A stretch of 50,004 nucleotides of DNA, taken from NCBI GenBank assembly GCA_025454525.1, contig JALOOG010000025.1:1-50004 (forward strand), in the 5' to 3' direction. Under the pieces are notes generated by a model. The model did no database searches and was not told the origin of the DNA. It worked only from the letters and a program-made list of their open reading frames with translations. Position 1 is the stretch's first letter, and each line of letters begins with the position of its first letter. Origin of the DNA: Anaerolineae bacterium (lineage in GTDB: Bacteria > Chloroflexota > Anaerolineae > Aggregatilineales > Phototrophicaceae). Positions 36,747 through 45,687 of this stretch are shown here, piece after piece. A program made the translations under genes and the position numbers.

Positions 36747-38153
36747 TCACATTTCCATAATTTCATCTGCGGCACGCCATCCGCTTTCGATCGCACCGTG
36801 TACTGTGGCCGCACGTTCCATGTGTGTGGCTTCTCCCGCAAAATAAAGCGATCCCACCGACTCGGCCAACACCTCACGATATTCAGAACCGTCCACCGGT
36901 ACATAAGAATAGCCCATTTTCGAGAATCGATCCCCACCCCAATTGATAAAGCGGCCTTCTACTAACTTATCGCGTAAGTTCTGCACTTGGAAGATCGCCT
37001 CTAGATCACGCAAGGCAGCGGTGATCACCTCTGCTTCACTCATCGCCTCAAAGCGTTTCGCAGCATCCCCACCGACCAACGCGGTCAAGATCGACGCTTC
37101 GTCTTCACGCCCATAGCCCGGTCTCCACCAGATTTGTGTGTCTTGGATCGTGGCGATCACCGCAAAATTGATCTCCCAAAACGGTTCACTAAATTTAAGG
37201 ATGATCTTATCGACATGGCCTGCGCCAAGCGCATCGATCGCCTCTTGTTTGTCATCGGGTAGCGGCGGGTCAAATTCGACATCACCGGCCTGCAACACTC
37301 CTAAGGGCAAGGTGACGATCACGTAATCGGCTTCGATCTGATCGTCATCTTCGGTATAGACGATCGCGCCTTCATCATCCCATTCGACATAATTCACGAT
37401 CTTATTGAGGCGAATCTCTAAGTTTTCGGACATGGCTTCTAACAACGGGGTATAACCGTCCGCGAGTTGGCCGTCATATTCGCTATCATCGCCTTCGTAG
37501 CTCTGTTCAATGAAGCCTAATACGCCGAGGTCTTTGAGATCCGCGCCATAATCCGAGGCCATATCGTTGTTTAACAGCTTACGCACATCGGGGTCGAGAT
37601 CGATCTCATGTTCATCTAACAATTCTGCGAGGCTCAGATCGCTGTCTTCTTCTTCATACCACGACTCAGCTAAGCGATCCAATTCATCGTCATCGATCAA
37701 GTTGATCCCGTCGATATTGGCCCATTGATCCGGGCTAAGTACGCCTTGTGAGGTGAATAGGTATAATTCGGCCTCATCCCCGATTTCACGGCTGGCAAGC
37801 CCGTATTCATCTGCCAGATCCCAAGTGATCACGTTATCGCCATGGACAAATTCCGCACCCAATTCCACTGGATGCGATGCAAGCGTGCGATCGGTTAAGA
37901 CGCGCCCGCCGATGCGATCCCGTGCTTCTAACAAGATCACTTTGTAACCTTCCGCTTGAAGATAGGCCCCGGCGGCGATTCCGGCCGCCCCCGCGCCGAT
38001 GATCACCACCGTTTCGCGATCCGAATCATCATCATTTTGATCTTGCGCGTGCAATAGGCGGGCATGAAAGGCCAAGGCGGCCATCGTGCCACCTAATAAC
38101 AACGCTTGTAAAAAAGCACGTCTGGTGAAGGCATGTTGAGCGGTTGTGGACAT
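36747..38153 (-). CDS. FAD-dependent amine oxidase with Tat signal
   Basis: 468 residues. The N-terminus has a twin-arginine signal (FTRRAFLQALLLGGTMAALA), so the folded flavoprotein is exported. A low-complexity acidic stretch (NDDDSD) precedes the FAD-binding start VVIIGAGAAGIAAGAYLQ. The family motif ARDRIGGRVLTDR follows, and later VELGAEFVHG and the C-terminal FAD motif SLYFAGEATHMERAATVHGA. It resembles polyamine/monoamine oxidases that oxidise amines with release of hydrogen peroxide. The gene is 15 bases behind the E1-like gene. An exported oxidase in a cytoplasmic protein-tagging operon is unexpected; co-expression may be fortuitous or functional. Confidence 0.92.
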   Translation of the reverse strand: MSTTAQHAFTRRAFLQALLLGGTMAALAFHARLLHAQDQNDDDSDRETVVIIGAGAAGIAAGAYLQAEGYKVILLEARDRIGGRVLTDRTLASHPVELGAEFVHGDNVITWDLADEYGLASREIGDEAELYLFTSQGVLSPDQWANIDGINLIDDDELDRLAESWYEEEDSDLSLAELLDEHEIDLDPDVRKLLNNDMASDYGADLKDLGVLGFIEQSYEGDDSEYDGQLADGYTPLLEAMSENLEIRLNKIVNYVEWDDEGAIVYTEDDDQIEADYVIVTLPLGVLQAGDVEFDPPLPDDKQEAIDALGAGHVDKIILKFSEPFWEINFAVIATIQDTQIWWRPGYGREDEASILTALVGGDAAKRFEAMSEAEVITAALRDLEAIFQVQNLRDKLVEGRFINWGGDRFSKMGYSYVPVDGSEYREVLAESVGSLYFAGEATHMERAATVHGAIESGWRAADEIMEM

Positions 38154-38168
38154 GCGTATATCGATCCT

Positions 38169-39059
38169 TTAGGGTTGATTAGATTCAATGGTAAGGCCAG
38201 CAGTTCCGGCCAAGTCAGAGAGCGAAAATTTTTGGGTTTCATCAAATTCATCGCGGTTGATCAATTCGCCACACACTAAGCAATAGGGATCGCGTGGCAC
38301 ATCCACCCACAAAGAAGAATGCGGCGGACTCTGTTCACCGTCTACGATCTCCATGGCCGCGTTCGCAATGATGATCGTGTTGGCAGGGTACGGGGGGCGT
38401 ACCCCTTTAAGCAGTTCGGTCAGGGCAAAATCACTTTGAATCGCGGCCACTTTGGCCACATGCAGATAAAGGCCCGGTTCTGCGTCCAACGTGCCTTGCT
38501 GATTGATCATACCGTAATCCAAGTTTTGCGAAGCGGTCGGTTGAAAGAGGCCTTCACGCAATTCCGCCGCCCAACAGGCATAACACGGGCCATTCCCCGG
38601 ATCGATCCGCACCACGTCACCGCCTTCCCCGCGTTCATACACGCCCGCGTAAATGGCGGTGAGATCGCGCTCTACGCACGCCTCATTCAGGATATACTTG
38701 GTGTTCTCGTTATCGACCCCGACGATCAACAGATCAACCCCGTCTAACAGGTGAAGGTGACTTTCGATCTTGTCCTCGATCACTTGGATCTGGGCGTTGG
38801 GGTTGCGATGTTTGATCAGATCAGCAACGGCCGCCGCTTTATTCCAACCCAAGTAACGCCGATCGGCCACATGCCGGACAAAGTTGGACTCTTCTAACGT
38901 ATCATTGTCCACCAAGATAAAATTCCCGACTCCGCTCATGGCCAAAGTGAGCGCCACAAACCCGCCGCCTGATCCTAATCCGGCGATCACGACTCGCGAA
39001 CGCCCCAACCGTGCCAAATTTTCGCTACCAAATAATCGTTCTACCCGATCCCAACTCAT
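38169..39059 (-). CDS. E1-like (ThiF/MoeB family) activating enzyme
   Basis: 296 residues, one adenylation domain. It has the ATP-binding loop IAGLGSGGGFVAL (25-37), the ribose/Mg region LVDNDTLEESNFVRH (49-63), LGWNKAAAVAD with the conserved Asn-Lys, and GVDNENTKYILNEAC (114-128) with the catalytic Asp116. Two CxxC pairs (Cys159/162 and Cys260/263) bind the structural zinc. It would adenylate the C-terminus of a ubiquitin-like protein. The only other cysteine (Cys128) is the structural one common in ThiF, so no clear cysteine for thioester transfer is present in the expected loop (about 165-195). It is the third gene of the E2-JAB-E1 set (9-base gap to JAB). No fused modifier or E2 domain is seen. 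Confidence 0.9.
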   Translation of the reverse strand: MSWDRVERLFGSENLARLGRSRVVIAGLGSGGGFVALTLAMSGVGNFILVDNDTLEESNFVRHVADRRYLGWNKAAAVADLIKHRNPNAQIQVIEDKIESHLHLLDGVDLLIVGVDNENTKYILNEACVERDLTAIYAGVYERGEGGDVVRIDPGNGPCYACWAAELREGLFQPTASQNLDYGMINQQGTLDAEPGLYLHVAKVAAIQSDFALTELLKGVRPPYPANTIIIANAAMEIVDGEQSPPHSSLWVDVPRDPYCLVCGELINRDEFDETQKFSLSDLAGTAGLTIESNQP

Positions 39060-39068
39060 TTTAGCCCT

Positions 39069-40169
39069 CTATTCATCGGTTTCATCTTCAGGTTCATCGC
39101 GGATCACGATTTCGTCAGCGGTGGGGATTTTAGGCCGCGGAATGCCAAGGTGATCTTCTAACGCATGAAGGTATTCGATTAAGTATTTTTCGCTATCCCA
39201 AGTCCAATCCGGCGGATCTTGGACTTTTTCGGCTTTTTTCCAATGGCGCTCAAAGATCGCATGAAGATCATCATCAGGATGCCCCGGAACATAAGAGGCA
39301 AGATAAGCTCGCGGCGCAGATTTAGGATAATCGACCTCAGTCGCAACCAATAACATTTTAGAAGATCCCTCACGCCCAAACATAAAGGCGATCTCTAGTG
39401 GGCTATCCCCGTCCAGATCATATTGGATCGGGCCAAACCGGATCACTTGGTCATAATCCAATTGGTTGATCTCTAAGGTGGTGCGCGTTTCATCGATCAA
39501 ATGCCAAGGATACGGTGCAAATTTTGGCAATTGATCATCGGGATAGATCACCGGGGTGATCGGCAAAAAGACCGGGACATCCCGTTGAATATACCACCAA
39601 TCGATCCGGATGCTGGTGCCGTCTTTTTGGGGGATCGTGAGGTAATTGGCATTGGTGGCGCTGTTGCTTATGGTGGACTCGTGGCCGATCGTGAGAATCG
39701 GCACCAGCAGAAAATCGCGTGGCGAGTCGGGATCATCCATAAAATCTAAAGCCGATCCGAGATCCCCGCCGCTAGGGGCGATCATGTAACCGGGTTGTTT
39801 ATGCCAATCCCCAACATGATCCAGCGGTGTGTCCCATTTTCCGGTTTGTGGGGACTTGCGATAATGGGCGCGTTGCACTTCCCAGTTATCCGCTAACCAC
39901 AGCAAGATGTCCCCTTGCACCTCATCCCCTTGCACAAACATATACATTTCGCGTTCGGCGCTTTCATCTGGGGCGATCGTGTCTAGTACGTAAATGGTGG
40001 GAATCCCACCGGTAAATTTACCCTGTTCCACCAAGCCGATCATCGCCTCTCCGGTTTCATCGGCGATAAAGTGCTTGGATGCGGCCACCATTTTGTTGAT
40101 CACACGCTGCGCGATCACCAGATTCGGCACTACAATACCCTGAATGTTGGTCAAGAATTTCCTCCACAT
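39069..40169 (-). CDS. JAB/JAMM-like protein with altered metal motif
   Basis: 366 residues. The N-terminal domain (about 10-165) follows the JAB/MPN layout: the glutamate motif ETGEAMIGLVE (Glu38), a strand with YVLDTIAPD, then VGDWHKQPGYMIAPSGGDLG. The spacing matches H-x-H-x(10)-D exactly, with His123 and Asp136, and Ser133 is present. The second His position is Gln125, so one zinc ligand is changed. JAB enzymes in such operons trim or remove ubiquitin-like modifiers. Here activity may be weakened, or the Gln may still coordinate. The C-terminal half (about 170-366) is unassigned, with an acidic tail (EPEDETDE). It lies 3 bases after the E2 gene and 9 before the E1 gene. Confidence 0.8.
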   Translation of the reverse strand: MWRKFLTNIQGIVVPNLVIAQRVINKMVAASKHFIADETGEAMIGLVEQGKFTGGIPTIYVLDTIAPDESAEREMYMFVQGDEVQGDILLWLADNWEVQRAHYRKSPQTGKWDTPLDHVGDWHKQPGYMIAPSGGDLGSALDFMDDPDSPRDFLLVPILTIGHESTISNSATNANYLTIPQKDGTSIRIDWWYIQRDVPVFLPITPVIYPDDQLPKFAPYPWHLIDETRTTLEINQLDYDQVIRFGPIQYDLDGDSPLEIAFMFGREGSSKMLLVATEVDYPKSAPRAYLASYVPGHPDDDLHAIFERHWKKAEKVQDPPDWTWDSEKYLIEYLHALEDHLGIPRPKIPTADEIVIRDEPEDETDE

Positions 40170-40172
40170 AAA

Positions 40173-40640
40173 CTAACGACGGCGCGGGGGCAAAGGGGTA
40201 TTCGGGTTCGCGCGTTCTTCTAGACCCGGCCAATCTCCGGTTGCGCGCCAAGTGTAATAAGCATAGAGCCATTGAATCGCCCAAGCGGTGACAGTAACGG
40301 CCGTAGACCGACTCGGATTCCAACCGTAATGCTCACCGTCTTTGGGGTTAAATAAACACAATTGACCGTCTTCGTATTGATGTTTTTCGCTATAGATGCG
40401 CGGACGTAAGATATAAGCCTCGGCCGGGCGATTGGGATATTCGCTAGGGTAGACGATCTTTAAATTGTGTTCACGCACCCGTAAACGCGCTAAGTTGACC
40501 TCTACTTCACCTTCCCAATACAATAGACCATGCGAGGGGACAACTAATTTAAAGGTATTACCAAAGGTTGCGCGCATCGCCTCAACTTCTAAACGCATCC
40601 GCGGTGACACATTGCTACGTGTTCCCCACCATTCCGCCAT
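40173..40640 (-). CDS. E2-like (ubiquitin-conjugating fold) protein
   Basis: 155 residues. The E2 core is visible in order: the strand pair LYWEGEVEVNLARLRV, the proline-rich KIVYPSEYPNRPAEAYILRP (61-80, compare YP..YP..P in E2s), the flap SEKHQYEDGQLCLFNPKDGE with His87 and the likely catalytic Cys95, and the C-terminal helix with AWAIQWLYAYYTWRATGDWPG. This His...Gly-x-Leu-Cys-Leu arrangement is typical of bacterial E2-like proteins. It should take a modifier as thioester from the E1-like protein and pass it to a target. AAAGGA lies nine bases before ATG 40640. It is the first gene of the operon; the 260-base gap upstream holds its promoter. Confidence 0.88.
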   Translation of the reverse strand: MAEWWGTRSNVSPRMRLEVEAMRATFGNTFKLVVPSHGLLYWEGEVEVNLARLRVREHNLKIVYPSEYPNRPAEAYILRPRIYSEKHQYEDGQLCLFNPKDGEHYGWNPSRSTAVTVTAWAIQWLYAYYTWRATGDWPGLEERANPNTPLPPRRR

Positions 40641-41865: not shown

Positions 41866-44800
41866 TTAAGGCATCGGGATCAGCGGGGCAGCGGGTGAGC
41901 GCACCAAGCTGATGTCGTCGAAGTAGGCACGGCCCGTCGTATTCCGACTCCAGAACAGCACGCGGATTTGTACCACATCCGAACGGTTCAAGCTGGCAGC
42001 ATTGTAGCGGATTTGGACACGTTGAGCCGATCCATCGGCGTAGTTGACGATGACGCGGATACGGAAGTTCGGCGCACCGGTTGAACGAGCGAACCCGTTG
42101 AAGGTCAAGACATCACCTGTATTGAAGGCGGTGAATTGCGTGAGATCGACACGTTGTTGCAGGATGCTGTCTTCCACGGCACCACCACCGACAAACATGA
42201 ACGAACAGATCCCCGTGCGGGCCAAGCTTGCGTCACAGACACGACGTTCACCAGAGCCGTTACGGATGCCCCAGAAGTCGGCTACGCCATCAGCAGGGTT
42301 GGTATCGTCCTCGAAGCTACGGTTACGGAGCAGTTCTACCGCGCTTGGATCGGGGGTATTGGTCGCAGTCGGTGGGACTGGCGTATTCGTGGCCGTCGGT
42401 GGGACGGGGGTATTCGTCGCCGTTGGGCCAACCGGAGTTTCAGTCGCAGTCGGTGGGACTGGCGTTTCAGTCGCAGTCGGTGGGACTGGCGTTTCAGTCG
42501 CAGTCGGCGCGTCCGGTGTATTGGTTGCGGTCGGCGGGACGGGTGTTTCAGTCGCAGTCGGCGGGACTGGCGTTTCAGTGGCCGTCGGTGGGACGGGTGT
42601 TTCAGTCGCGGTCGGCGGGATCGGGGTGATCGTCGGGCCGGTAGACGTGAAGTCAAAATTAATCGTGTAGCTCACATCGGCAGCAGTGGTGGGAGTGCCA
42701 GACCAGCGCACGAGGTGGATGTAGTAGGTGACACCGCCTGTTACCGCAATATCCACTAGGAGCGATGAAGCACCATTACCCGATTCATCATCGCAAGCCA
42801 CTTGTGTCAAACTGCCATGCGTGCCGGTGAACACCGCGATGACGGTATCTAAGGGTGAGACTCCAGCCACGCTACCGTTGCTGTTGACATCCATCAACCC
42901 GTTTGAATTGGGGGTGAAGCGATACCAAACACCATTTGTTCCGGTGCGTGGGAAAGCGGTAGTACAATCGCCCATGATGCTGATCGAAGGATCACCTGCT
43001 TCAATACTCGCATAACGGACATTGGGTTCAACATGGGTGTAGGGCATGGTTGCCGCGTTATCGGCGTTGACCCATTGATTATGATGCGGCGCGAGATCGC
43101 AACCCAACGGTTCAATGGTGACGATGTTGGAGTAAAGGCCAAAGGTCATCGTACCGCTGTTATAGGCGCGCACACGATATTGATAAATCTCGCAAGTCAA
43201 CCCAGTATTGCTATAGGTCAAGGTTGGCGCTGTTACTACTGCAAGTTGAGTGAAGCTTCCCGTCAAAAGCGGTTTACGTTCTACGCGGTATTCGGTCGCA
43301 CTGGGGGCAGCCGTCCACGAGAGATCGATTTGGCTGTTGGAGGGTGAGGTTCCGCTCAAAGTCGGGGGCAATTCAGCCAAGGCAAAGTTCACCACCAACG
43401 TCCCGTTATTGGTCATAGGGCTATTGGCCCAACGCCCCACAACGATGTAGTAGGTGACATTGGGTTGTGCATTGAAACCGCTGACCCGCGAGAGGAAGTT
43501 GGTGCCACTAATATCATCGTTACAGGCGACTTGCGTTAATGAACTGGGAGTCCCCGTGAAGATCCCGATGATCGTGTCATTCTCAAGGGTGCTAGGGGCA
43601 AGAGTCGATCCGACAGTATCGACCGTTAAAGCGACACCGGTGGATGAATTAAAGGTATACCAAAGGTTGTTTGATCCGACTCGCGCTCCACCAAAAGCAC
43701 AGCTTAAGGTAGGATCACCCGCCGAAGTGGAAGCGTAACGGATGTTGGGTTCAGTGTCGGTAAAGGCGGCGGTGACCACATGCGCGTTTTGGATCAAGTC
43801 ATTGTCTGGAGCGCAGGGGCTGACTTCAACCACATTCGAGTACGCCGAATTATCGCCACCACGAACTGCACGCACCCGGTAGTCATAGAACGCACAAACC
43901 ACGGTATCGGTGAAGGTGACGGTATTGGCAGGTAAAGCGCTCAACAACGTCCAAGGCCCGTCGTCAACCGAACGTTCCAATTCATAACCGGTTTCGTCGG
44001 TCGCATTGTCTTGCCAATTCAATTGAATTGAGGTTTGGCTTAAAACCGTGGCCGTGAGATTGGTTGCAGCCAACGGACAGGCGCGAGCGGTATCGGTATC
44101 CACATTCGAGAAGTTCGAGAAGGTGGGGCCGCTGGTGTTGGTCGCACGGACGCGATACGAGACCGGGCCGCAGGGTGCGGTCATATCACTGTAACTGGTC
44201 GAGTCAGCGGGTAATGTGGCGATATTCGACCAATTGAGACCATCGATTGAGCGTTGTAAGTTGTAATTGGTTTCCCCCGCGATGTCATCCCACGTCACAT
44301 TGATTTGCGTGGACGAAGCGGTGGTCGCATTCAAATTGGTCGGAGTCGGCAAGGTGATCGCCAACGATGCAAAGGCCGAGAACGCATCAATACGCGGGTA
44401 AACCACGCTGTTACGATAATCCGTCACCGGATCGCCCGTGTTTTCGATCAAGTCTTCCAATTGAGTCGGGGTCAAGCTGGGATTGTATTGTAATAACAGC
44501 GCCGCAATACCGGCCGCGGTAGGAGTCGCCATTGACGTACCGCAGATCGTATCGGTAGCCGTGGTGCTGCCCACCCATTCGGCGGTGATCGTACAACCGG
44601 GGGCCAAAATATCGACCAATTCACCCACGCCTTGTGTAGCAGTGGCGTTAGAGAAGCAGGTCACTTTGTCCGGTTGGCCGTTTTCGGTACAGTTGCTGAA
44701 TGTGGCGGTAAAGACCGCATCGCTGACCGAACCAACACCGATCGCGCCCGTGACGCATCCCGGTGCGCTGACATCAACGATCGACGCATCGTTCCCAGTG

Positions 44801-45687
44801 GCGACAAAGATCGAGATCCCCAAAGCGTTGATGTTCGAGAACGCGGTGACATAAGCGGCGTTATCCGCATCACAGGCCGCTTGCGTGGCATAGTTACCGC
44901 CGCCCAAACTCATGTTGACGACGTTGGTTTGCCAAGTCGCATCGTTAGAAACGATCGCGTTCAGCGCGTTGAGGATGTTGGTGTCGCTTGTACTACCAGT
45001 GGTGAACACCTTCAGCGCGATAATTTCGGCATCTGGCGCAACACCATCGCCACCCGTGATGATCCCGCTCACATGCGTCCCGTGACCGCCTTGGTCTTCA
45101 GCACTGGTCGGGCCACCGGGGCAGTCGTTTTCGGTACGGAAACAGGCTTGCGCGAAGAGGTCATCTGCTAAGTTGACATGGGTGGTATTGATACCAGAGT
45201 CGATCACCGCTACACGAGTCCCAGCCCCGGTATAACCGGAGGATTGTACATCGGGGGCGCGGGTCAACGCATCCGATTCAGCATCCAGCATATAGCGTGT
45301 TTGATCAAGGTTGATCGCCCGCACATTGGGATGTTTGATCAGTTGTTCAAGGGTTTCGTTTTGCGTAGTGAGTGATAAAGCGGCAATATGGCTATAACGT
45401 GCATTCAAGGTGTAGCCTTGTGGATCTAGCGCACTTAACACGCTGTTTTGAGCATTGGCTACCGAGACCGAAAGTTGATTAATGTCACCGGGCATCACCG
45501 CGGTATTTAAATTCAAGGTGATGATCACGCGGGCCGAGCCGGCTTTCATCGCTTGATAGACGCTTTCGCTCACATACGCGGGCATCGTCTTAAAGGTTTG
45601 TGCGTCGGCCGTTTGCACAGATGGACGCATAAAACCAATTGCCAAAAATGCCAGCATTACGACTGGCAAGAAACGTACAAATTTCAT
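41866..45687 (-). CDS. Secreted multi-domain subtilisin-like (S8) protease
   Basis: 1273 residues. Signal peptide (about 1-30), an I9-like propeptide (about 50-133, ARVIITLNLN ... VRAINLDQTRYML) and the S8 domain (about 150-440). The catalytic triad is complete: Asp163 (VAVIDSGIN), His202 (GGHGTHVSG) and Ser385 (CGTSMATPTAAG), with oxyanion Asn299. Two fibronectin III-like domains follow (about 445-630), then a beta-sandwich domain (about 635-780), another Fn3 (about 785-865) and a second copy of the sandwich domain (about 870-1015, sharing EPNVRYAS with the first). A Pro/Thr linker (about 1020-1115) and a C-terminal carbohydrate-binding-like domain (ELLRNRSFEDD ... AYFDDISL) end the protein. 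It is an extracellular endopeptidase, likely glycan- or surface-bound. Confidence 0.93.
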   Translation of the reverse strand: MKFVRFLPVVMLAFLAIGFMRPSVQTADAQTFKTMPAYVSESVYQAMKAGSARVIITLNLNTAVMPGDINQLSVSVANAQNSVLSALDPQGYTLNARYSHIAALSLTTQNETLEQLIKHPNVRAINLDQTRYMLDAESDALTRAPDVQSSGYTGAGTRVAVIDSGINTTHVNLADDLFAQACFRTENDCPGGPTSAEDQGGHGTHVSGIITGGDGVAPDAEIIALKVFTTGSTSDTNILNALNAIVSNDATWQTNVVNMSLGGGNYATQAACDADNAAYVTAFSNINALGISIFVATGNDASIVDVSAPGCVTGAIGVGSVSDAVFTATFSNCTENGQPDKVTCFSNATATQGVGELVDILAPGCTITAEWVGSTTATDTICGTSMATPTAAGIAALLLQYNPSLTPTQLEDLIENTGDPVTDYRNSVVYPRIDAFSAFASLAITLPTPTNLNATTASSTQINVTWDDIAGETNYNLQRSIDGLNWSNIATLPADSTSYSDMTAPCGPVSYRVRATNTSGPTFSNFSNVDTDTARACPLAATNLTATVLSQTSIQLNWQDNATDETGYELERSVDDGPWTLLSALPANTVTFTDTVVCAFYDYRVRAVRGGDNSAYSNVVEVSPCAPDNDLIQNAHVVTAAFTDTEPNIRYASTSAGDPTLSCAFGGARVGSNNLWYTFNSSTGVALTVDTVGSTLAPSTLENDTIIGIFTGTPSSLTQVACNDDISGTNFLSRVSGFNAQPNVTYYIVVGRWANSPMTNNGTLVVNFALAELPPTLSGTSPSNSQIDLSWTAAPSATEYRVERKPLLTGSFTQLAVVTAPTLTYSNTGLTCEIYQYRVRAYNSGTMTFGLYSNIVTIEPLGCDLAPHHNQWVNADNAATMPYTHVEPNVRYASIEAGDPSISIMGDCTTAFPRTGTNGVWYRFTPNSNGLMDVNSNGSVAGVSPLDTVIAVFTGTHGSLTQVACDDESGNGASSLLVDIAVTGGVTYYIHLVRWSGTPTTAADVSYTINFDFTSTGPTITPIPPTATETPVPPTATETPVPPTATETPVPPTATNTPDAPTATETPVPPTATETPVPPTATETPVGPTATNTPVPPTATNTPVPPTATNTPDPSAVELLRNRSFEDDTNPADGVADFWGIRNGSGERRVCDASLARTGICSFMFVGGGAVEDSILQQRVDLTQFTAFNTGDVLTFNGFARSTGAPNFRIRVIVNYADGSAQRVQIRYNAASLNRSDVVQIRVLFWSRNTTGRAYFDDISLVRSPAAPLIPMP
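42353..42624. repeat. 27-bp tandem repeats encoding the PTATxTPVP linker
   Basis: About ten units of 27 bases encode the nine-residue linker module in the S8 protease. Adjacent units such as 42451-42477 and 42478-42504 are identical. Multiples of three keep frame, so length can vary by slippage. Long open frames on the plus strand over this area come from the repeat. Confidence 0.9.

What the first reader, a model, noticed from the sequence alone, without database searches (positions are those of the whole stretch)
39069..40169. JAMM motif with Gln replacing the second zinc-binding His
The protein keeps Glu38, His123, Ser133 and Asp136 at exact JAMM spacing, but the H-x-H pair reads H-K-Q (Gln125). 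In known JAMM peptidases both histidines hold zinc. This one may be a binding-only protein, have reduced activity, or use Gln as a ligand. In an operon without a visible modifier this hints at an altered or non-cleaving role.
Basis: partly seen in the sequence, partly recalled or inferred. Interest (0 to 1): 0.55.

Follow-up and report, generated by a model that had tools for sequence, protein, structure and literature searches.

The report
Ubiquitin-cutting enzyme with swapped metal ligand
A bacterial enzyme of the ubiquitin-removing JAMM type carries glutamine where a zinc-holding histidine normally sits; its relatives in one bacterial order carry only glutamine or histidine there and leave the rest of the active site untouched, so this is probably a working, inherited variant and not a broken gene.

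Summary
The 366-residue protein (39069-40169, minus strand) has Glu38, His123, Gln125, Ser133 and Asp136 at exact JAMM spacing, and its model has the JAMM/MPN fold (Z 15.6 to BRCC36). The Gln is not private. In 122 non-redundant orthologues, by inference all from the order Aggregatilineales (Chloroflexota), position 125 is Gln in 110 and His in 12, never anything else. His123, Ser133 and Asp136 are invariant (122/122), as is Glu38 (121/121). His marks one family (11/11 read) and one divergent genome; whether the residue changed once or more is not settled. The 30 best-scoring other JAMMs of the phylum all have HxH. This argues against a decayed, non-cleaving protein and for a metal site in which Gln stands in for His; activity is untested. 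The operon E2-JAMM-E1 is vertically inherited. The apparently missing modifier may be c7, a small, largely unfolded protein with a near-invariant C-terminal block. It lies next to E1 in 54 of 63 genomes, but on another contig in this one. c7 as modifier is only a lead: away from E1 it keeps a methyltransferase and/or NUDIX neighbour. New variant of a known kind.

The parts
40173..40640 (-). E2 (ubiquitin-conjugating)-like protein, 155 aa; invariant Cys95 and, eight residues before it, His87
   Evidence: PADLOC E2 models, best E 8.3e-18; Cys95 and His87 invariant in 19 of 19 aligned; profile matches solved eukaryotic E2s such as UBE2L3, E about 1e-5; UQ_con in 13 of 19 members, best E 0.0029
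39069..40169 (-). JAMM/MPN-domain protein, 366 aa, with Gln125 in place of the second metal-binding His
40056..40058 (-). codon of Glu38 (expected general base)
   Evidence: E in 121 of 121 readable orthologues
39801..39803 (-). codon of His123 (first metal ligand position)
   Evidence: H in 122 of 122
39795..39797 (-). codon CAA of Gln125 (second metal ligand position)
   Evidence: Q 110, H 12 of 122; codons CAA 29, CAG 81 versus CAT 9, CAC 3
39771..39773 (-). codon of Ser133
   Evidence: S in 122 of 122
39762..39764 (-). codon of Asp136 (third metal ligand position)
   Evidence: D in 122 of 122
39147..39491 (-). C-terminal domain of the JAMM protein (residues about 227-341), probably an RWD/E2-like fold without the catalytic Cys
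   Evidence: predicted order helix, four strands, helices; conserved YPxxxP; weak profile match to the operon's E2 family in the YP register, E 0.0011, probability 20 percent; no Pfam hit of weight; fold not searched on its own
38169..39059 (-). E1/ThiF-like activating enzyme, 296 aa; two CxxC pairs; conserved C-terminal tail with SLxxL
   Evidence: PF00899 E 3.9e-35; invariant C159, C162, C260, C263, S279, L283 in 17 of 17; closest solved relatives by sequence MccB and MoeB

Best explanation
The protein is the deconjugating or processing peptidase of a vertically inherited bacterial ubiquitin-like conjugation operon (E2, JAMM, E1) that is present in most, though not all, families sampled of the order Aggregatilineales. 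Gln125 is a fixed lineage trait and not a lesion. It most likely takes the place of the second metal-binding His (directly through its side-chain oxygen, or through a water), together with His123 and Asp136, while Glu38 activates the water and Ser133 stabilises the intermediate, so that the enzyme still cleaves, perhaps with a different metal preference or a lower rate. Shown here: conservation, the restriction of position 125 to Gln or His, fold, gene order. Inferred: metal binding, cleavage, substrate. The modifier is unknown; the best candidate is c7, a small, largely unfolded protein with a near-invariant C-terminal block.
For: Position 125 is Gln 110, His 12, nothing else in 122 orthologues, although the median column of the JAMM domain has 8 residue types and the median identity of 1936 sampled pairs is 47.5 percent. 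E38, H123, S133 and D136 are invariant, also within the Gln-only set. Both residues occur in one orthologous operon: His in 11 of 11 members of family f94 and in G493, which the genome taxonomy puts in the window's own, otherwise Gln-type, family. Model: H123 and Q125 on strand 117-125, D136 on helix 134-145, the AfJAMM layout (His67 and His69 on beta4, Asp80 on alpha2; PMC300881, passages). JAMM protein found in 95 of 98 family genomes, 63 of 63 of those at least 90 percent complete and at most 5 percent contaminated.
Against: Gln is not a usual JAMM ligand: the 30 best-scoring other JAMM proteins of a phylum survey are all HxH. In BRCC36 a His-to-Gln change (H122Q) is used as a DUB-null mutant (PMC8481630, passages), though as I read the motif that is the first His. 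Repeated switching between His and Gln is not established: two E1+E2 trees need 2 changes, but an AU test does not reject all 12 His rows as one clade (p 0.744, and that tree scored better than the free one), so one single change is possible. No metal or activity data exist for this family. Invariance would also fit a metal site that is only structural or used for binding. The cell has two other Prok-JAB matches, so this need not be its only working JAMM.
Confidence: 0.55

Rival explanations
1. Pseudoenzyme: the Gln weakens or abolishes metal binding and the protein serves as a reader or binder of the modifier.
For: A His-to-Gln change inactivates BRCC36 (PMC8481630, passages); the 30 other JAMMs read keep HxH; CSN6 (4qft, listed) shows that the fold can be kept without catalysis (its MPN-minus status is recalled). 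If the His-to-Gln change happened only once (not excluded), there is less evidence that the two residues are exchangeable.
Against: Glu38, His123, Ser133 and Asp136 stay invariant through 110 Gln proteins, and within them position 125 never drifts; a pseudoenzyme would be expected to let some of these go.
Confidence: 0.26
2. The Gln-type protein is a metalloenzyme with another job, for example hydrolysis of a small adduct (as Mec does on CysO-cysteine, recalled) and not of a protein conjugate.
For: JAMM proteins outside ubiquitin systems exist (recalled); ThiS/MoaD-like proteins are encoded in all 5 genomes sampled.
Against: The gene sits between an E2 and an E1 in 63 of 65 loci. ThiS-like proteins also occur in G735, where neither the E2 nor the JAMM gene was found, so they do not track the operon.
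Confidence: 0.12
3. Private mutation or sequencing error in this draft genome.
For: The window comes from an assembly of 230 contigs.
Against: Gln in 110 of 122 orthologues.
Confidence: 0.01

Closest known systems
Bacterial operon type 6d of Iyer et al. 2006 (Ub-like, JAB, E1-like, E2-like, helical protein; I recall that this kind is now called Bil)
   Same: Separate JAB, E1 and E2 genes in one operon (PMC1779556, passages)
   Different: 6d has a beta-grasp Ub-like gene, a JAB with an extra N-terminal domain and a sporadic distribution. Here no beta-grasp gene was recognised in the operon, the extra domain is C-terminal, inheritance is vertical within an order, and the second ligand His is Gln in most members.
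CsRpn11 (Caldiarchaeum JAMM deubiquitinase)
   Same: Same fold (Z 14.8), same spacing of the active-site positions; it trims a modifier precursor and removes conjugates (PMC6043591, passages)
   Different: CsRpn11 has His83 and His85; here HKQ, with Lys between, plus a C-terminal domain; no modifier known
Cap3 / BRCC36 (bacterial and eukaryotic JAMM peptidases)
   Same: Fold (Z 13.0 and 15.6)
   Different: Canonical HxH in the motif (recalled; for BRCC36 also implied by the H122Q work)
Operon of G540 (L163; same class, another family)
   Same: JAB with a YPxxxP-like C-terminal part, E2 and E1
   Different: Its JAB has canonical HSH; the E1 has an extra N-terminal part; similarity is low (JAB 36.5 bits)

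Membership tests
JAMM/MPN+ metallopeptidase | MPN fold | tested here: met
   AlphaFold2 model pLDDT 89.6; VIA Z up to 15.6 over 166 residues
JAMM/MPN+ metallopeptidase | Glu, first His, Ser and Asp at EXnHxHx7SxxD spacing | tested here: met
JAMM/MPN+ metallopeptidase | second ligand His | tested here: not met
   Gln125 here and in 110 of 122 orthologues; His in 12. Hence filed as a JAMM-fold variant, not as a canonical JAMM.
JAMM/MPN+ metallopeptidase | Ser or Thr between the two ligands | tested here: not met
   Lys 120, Arg 2 of 122, Lys in the 12 His forms too. The cited paper says that Asn occurs in distant relatives, so this feature is a soft one.
JAMM/MPN+ metallopeptidase | zinc binding and peptidase activity | not testable with these tools
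   needs protein
Bacterial ubiquitin-like conjugation operon | E1-like and E2-like genes linked to the JAB gene | tested here: met
Bacterial ubiquitin-like conjugation operon | E2 catalytic Cys | tested here: met
   Cys95 in 19 of 19
Bacterial ubiquitin-like conjugation operon | linked beta-grasp modifier gene | tested here: inconclusive
   Of the neighbours in 20 loci clustered only clusters c4, c7 and c8 were read; none looked like a beta-grasp modifier. c7's low-confidence model (pLDDT 68.5, pTM 0.36) shows no beta-grasp. The other neighbouring ORFs were not searched.
Iyer type 6d / Bil | JAB with an N-terminal alpha+beta domain | tested here: not met
   The JAMM fold starts at about residue 10-14; the extra domain is C-terminal

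The most novel reading that the evidence does not exclude
A bacterial ubiquitin-like pathway with a modifier that is not ubiquitin-like: c7, a largely unfolded, Pup-like protein whose near-invariant end ...LRKRRAWY is freed by the Gln-type JAMM from a short variable tail, adenylated by a MccB/MoeB-like E1 that has no conserved cysteine beyond two CxxC pairs, passed to the E2 cysteine and put on targets; prophage scaffold proteins and an RHS-like protein that carry a similar motif would be exploiting or mimicking it.
Probability: 0.17. Interest if true: 0.9.

Novelty: new variant of a known kind. Interest (0 to 1): 0.54.

Why it matters
JAMM peptidases are drug targets (recalled) and are judged active or dead by whether both histidines are present. 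A natural lineage in which one ligand position is Gln in most members and His in some, within one orthologous operon, is a ready-made test of whether that rule holds, with His-type relatives as built-in controls. It also marks a ubiquitin-like system that is core genome in part of an order and not a sporadic island, with no recognised modifier, which makes the search for that modifier concrete.

Tried and rejected
Private mutation: rejected. Mobile or viral origin: no relative of the JAMM protein in plasmids at E<=0.01 or, by pattern scan, in viral contigs. ThiS/MoaD family as the modifier: two matches in the own genome, one of them a MoaD-MoaE-like fusion by eye, but such proteins also occur in G735, where neither E2 nor JAMM was found; kept only as a weak rival. 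Ribosomal protein L27 as a second host protein with a processed aromatic motif, after the Firmicutes precedent (recalled; related papers seen only in the listing): five L27 proteins have no N-terminal extension. Relatives of two of the phage-like scaffold proteins: none in viral contigs; for the first also none in phage records. c7 in viral contigs: two hits, but in a recombinase-like ORF (by eye) around a short shared stretch, taken as chance. Fold of the C-terminal domain: the PDB second look covers residues 10-216 only, so an RWD or E2 match was neither shown nor excluded. Solved structures by sequence: the JAMM protein alone gave none at E<=10 and its profile only two at E 0.14. Papers: neither a Gln-type JAMM nor this system in Aggregatilineales was found by the searches, which cover open-licence papers only. 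I saw their listings and opened only PMC8481630, PMC300881, PMC6043591 and PMC1779556, for passages.

Results against my reading: the claim that His and Gln switched at least twice did not survive a check. Two quick trees need 2 changes, but the AU test does not reject the 12 His rows as one clade (p 0.744); I lowered the main confidence from 0.58 to 0.55, the novel case from 0.18 to 0.17, and raised the pseudoenzyme rival from 0.24 to 0.26 for this. c7 is not matched at E<=0.01 in four family genomes that have the JAMM gene (G418, G427, G461, G477). In nine fetched regions where c7 is away from the JAMM gene it has a PIMT and/or NUDIX neighbour (9 of 9; in G494 the separation may be only a contig end), so its tie may be to those genes. 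The co-absence of c7 and JAMM lies almost wholly in three families and may be one event. Rows dropped before the 122 count: of 220 loci with a JAB match, three under 100 bits (L163, L004, L164) and then 94 whose residues 60-150 repeat another row; of the 123 left, one partial protein (L161) had no motif region. Locus L082 has the E2 but no JAB match in the stretch fetched.

Full report
What is there. The ORF at 39069-40169 (minus strand, 366 aa) lies in a tight operon: E2-like protein 40640-40173, JAMM protein 40169-39069, E1/ThiF-like protein 39059-38169. PADLOC models match all three (E2 best E 8.3e-18, JAB 3.4e-6, E1-E2 1.5e-25) and Pfam names the E1 (ThiF, E 3.9e-35).

Fold. A model built from the window protein and 46 orthologues has pLDDT 89.6 and pTM 0.86. 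Its residues 10-216 are a JAMM/MPN domain: VIA Z 15.6 to the BRISC chain 6h3c_B, which I take as BRCC36 (rmsd 3.5, 166 aligned), 14.8 to CsRpn11 (6fnn_B, rmsd 3.0, 150 aligned), 13.0 to Cap3 (9ild_A, rmsd 2.8, 142 aligned). His123 and Gln125 lie on the strand 117-125 and Asp136 on the helix 134-145, the arrangement of the zinc ligands His67, His69 and Asp80 in AfJAMM (PMC300881, passages). Residues 227-341 follow the order helix, four strands, helices, with a conserved YPxxxP. A profile comparison with the operon's own E2 family aligns the two YP motifs (E 0.0011, probability 20 percent). I infer an RWD/E2-like domain without the cysteine; it was not tested by a fold search of its own.

The Gln is a lineage trait. 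The JAMM protein occurs in 95 of 98 genomes of the window's family, in 63 of 63 of those at least 90 percent complete and at most 5 percent contaminated. A class-wide profile search of 346 genomes hit 30: 27 in the same order and 3 weakly outside it. A search of 61 genomes of the order hit 47. The order's name is inferred: titles of relatives in genome contigs say mostly Chloroflexi or Anaerolineae and, for L075, Aggregatilineales (80 of 133 loci kept there; one title, L103, says Bacteroidetes). NCBI places Aggregatilineales in Anaerolineae, Chloroflexota. Of 220 loci with a JAB match, three fell under 100 bits and were dropped, and rows that repeat another over residues 60-150 were dropped; 123 were aligned (62 from genome contigs, 60 from the genome search, and the window) and 122 could be read at the motif: Glu38 121 of 121, His123 122 of 122, Ser133 122 of 122, Asp136 122 of 122; position 124 Lys 120 and Arg 2; position 125 Gln 110 and His 12. 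Gln codons are CAA 29 and CAG 81, His codons CAT 9 and CAC 3, one base apart. The median column of the domain has 8 residue types, and the median identity of 1936 sampled pairs is 47.5 percent.

His or Gln, and how often it changed. His is found in all 11 members of family f94 that were read and in G493, the most divergent member of the window's family. On a quick tree of E1+E2 (49 rows, JAMM gene left out) at least 2 changes are needed, and f94 is a clade with SH-aLRT 100; without the distant outgroup the count is still 2 (48 rows). But the AU test does not reject all 12 His rows as one clade (p 0.744; that tree even scored better than the free search). G493 has a long branch. So repeated switching is suggested by the genome taxonomy, which puts G493 and f94 in different families, but it is not shown. 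The outgroup L163 has HSH, which fits His as the older state. What is shown is that position 125 holds one of two residues able to bind a metal while everything around it stays put.

How unusual. I read the 30 best-scoring Prok-JAB matches of a survey of 301 genomes of the phylum: 22 by a first pattern and the other 8 by a looser one, all HxH. A His-to-Gln change (H122Q) is used as a DUB-null mutation in BRCC36 (PMC8481630, passages). The Gln variant therefore departs from the rule, which is why an active Gln enzyme would be of interest and why a pseudoenzyme stays a serious rival.

The rest of the machine. E2: Cys95 and His87 invariant in 19 of 19, and the profile reaches UBE2L3 and other solved E2s. 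E1: the only cysteines invariant in 17 of 17 are two CxxC pairs; no further cysteine that could carry a thioester is conserved. Its closest solved relatives by sequence are MccB and MoeB. MccB activates a short linear peptide (recalled), so an E1 of this kind need not be tied to a beta-grasp partner.

The apparently missing modifier. In 54 of 63 genomes with at least 700 bases downstream the gene after E1 is c7, a protein of about 75-125 aa (start codons not verified) with a disordered-looking N-terminal part and a block RLERLGGEPAPxITPEEFARLQxxGQVxIDxRGRVRTxRR...AGVSLRKRRAWY followed by a tail of zero to about thirty variable residues. Pfam gives nothing of weight. In the window's genome c7 is on another contig (C162:44515-44811), followed by a PIMT-like methyltransferase gene and a NUDIX gene (the two names are by eye). 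Across 61 genomes of the order JAMM and c7 agree in 59: 46 have both, 13 neither, G809 has c7 alone, G813 JAMM alone. The E2 is found in 46, missing from the same 13, from G809 and from G795. Twelve of the 13 double absences belong to families f95, f137 and f138, so this may be one event. Within the family 93 of 98 have c7. Against c7 as modifier: in nine fetched regions where it is away from the JAMM gene it has a PIMT and/or NUDIX neighbour (9 of 9; in G494 only a contig end may part them); its model is poor and shows no beta-grasp (pLDDT 68.5, pTM 0.36); and four family genomes have the JAMM gene but no c7 match. I put c7 as modifier or processed substrate at about 0.3, and the full Pup-like pathway at 0.17.

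Most likely working. E1 adenylates the C-terminus of a small protein, the E2 cysteine takes it over, targets are modified, and the Gln-type JAMM trims the precursor or removes the modifier, with Glu38, Ser133, His123, Gln125 and Asp136 in their usual places. Fold, conservation, gene order and co-occurrence are shown; each chemical step is inferred. As core genome of a lineage the system looks like housekeeping and not a sporadic defence island, though protection from phage is not excluded.

Comparison. The nearest described arrangement that I read of is operon type 6d of Iyer et al. 2006 (PMC1779556, passages). Ours differs in lacking a recognised beta-grasp gene, in the position of the extra JAB domain, in its vertical inheritance and in the ligand. 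I file the protein as a JAMM-fold variant because one defining residue was tested and not met.

Noticed in passing
L331:9201-9917, L333:7110-7865, L330:1031-1756: Three proteins of phage-like gene clusters begin with a stretch like the C-terminal block of c7 (xRRxxAEAxISLxKxRxWY) before an acidic linker; motif E per genome 3.4e-4, 8.3e-4 and 0.11, the last at chance level alone. Two match PHROG head scaffolding families (E 0.0025 and 1.2e-8); the third resembles them by eye. It recalls phage scaffolds with a host protease site; a chance likeness to a MerR-type helix-turn-helix is the sober reading.
   Followed up: partly
L334:3937-5070 and L332:6933-7574: The same motif (GRIRVGRxD..GASLRRRRAWY; SLRQRRAWY) lies inside an ORF with RHS-like repeats (by eye) just before its C-terminal part, and near the start of a small ORF without Pfam match (E 1.3e-6 and 2.2e-6).
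   Followed up: partly
L281:6752-8812 (G000 contig C162): The c7 gene of the window's genome, followed by a PIMT-like methyltransferase and a NUDIX-like gene; relatives of these follow E1 within 3.5 kb in 22 and 35 of 63 genomes.
   Followed up: yes
38169-38230 (end of the E1 gene): The E1 family ends in a conserved SLxxL stretch beyond its second CxxC pair, perhaps a docking tail (S279 and L283 invariant in 17 of 17).
   Followed up: no
36747-38153: Flavin amine oxidase with a twin-arginine-like start follows the E1 gene after 15 bases, in the place where relatives have c7; it clustered with no gene of the 20 other neighbourhoods compared.
   Followed up: no
41866-45687: Large secreted subtilase-like protein (by eye) with a long PVPPTATETPV-type repeat before its C-terminal domain.
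   Followed up: no
39798-39800 (residue 124 of the JAMM protein): Lys (or Arg) replaces the Ser/Thr between the two metal ligands in all 122 orthologues read, in the His forms too.
   Followed up: partly
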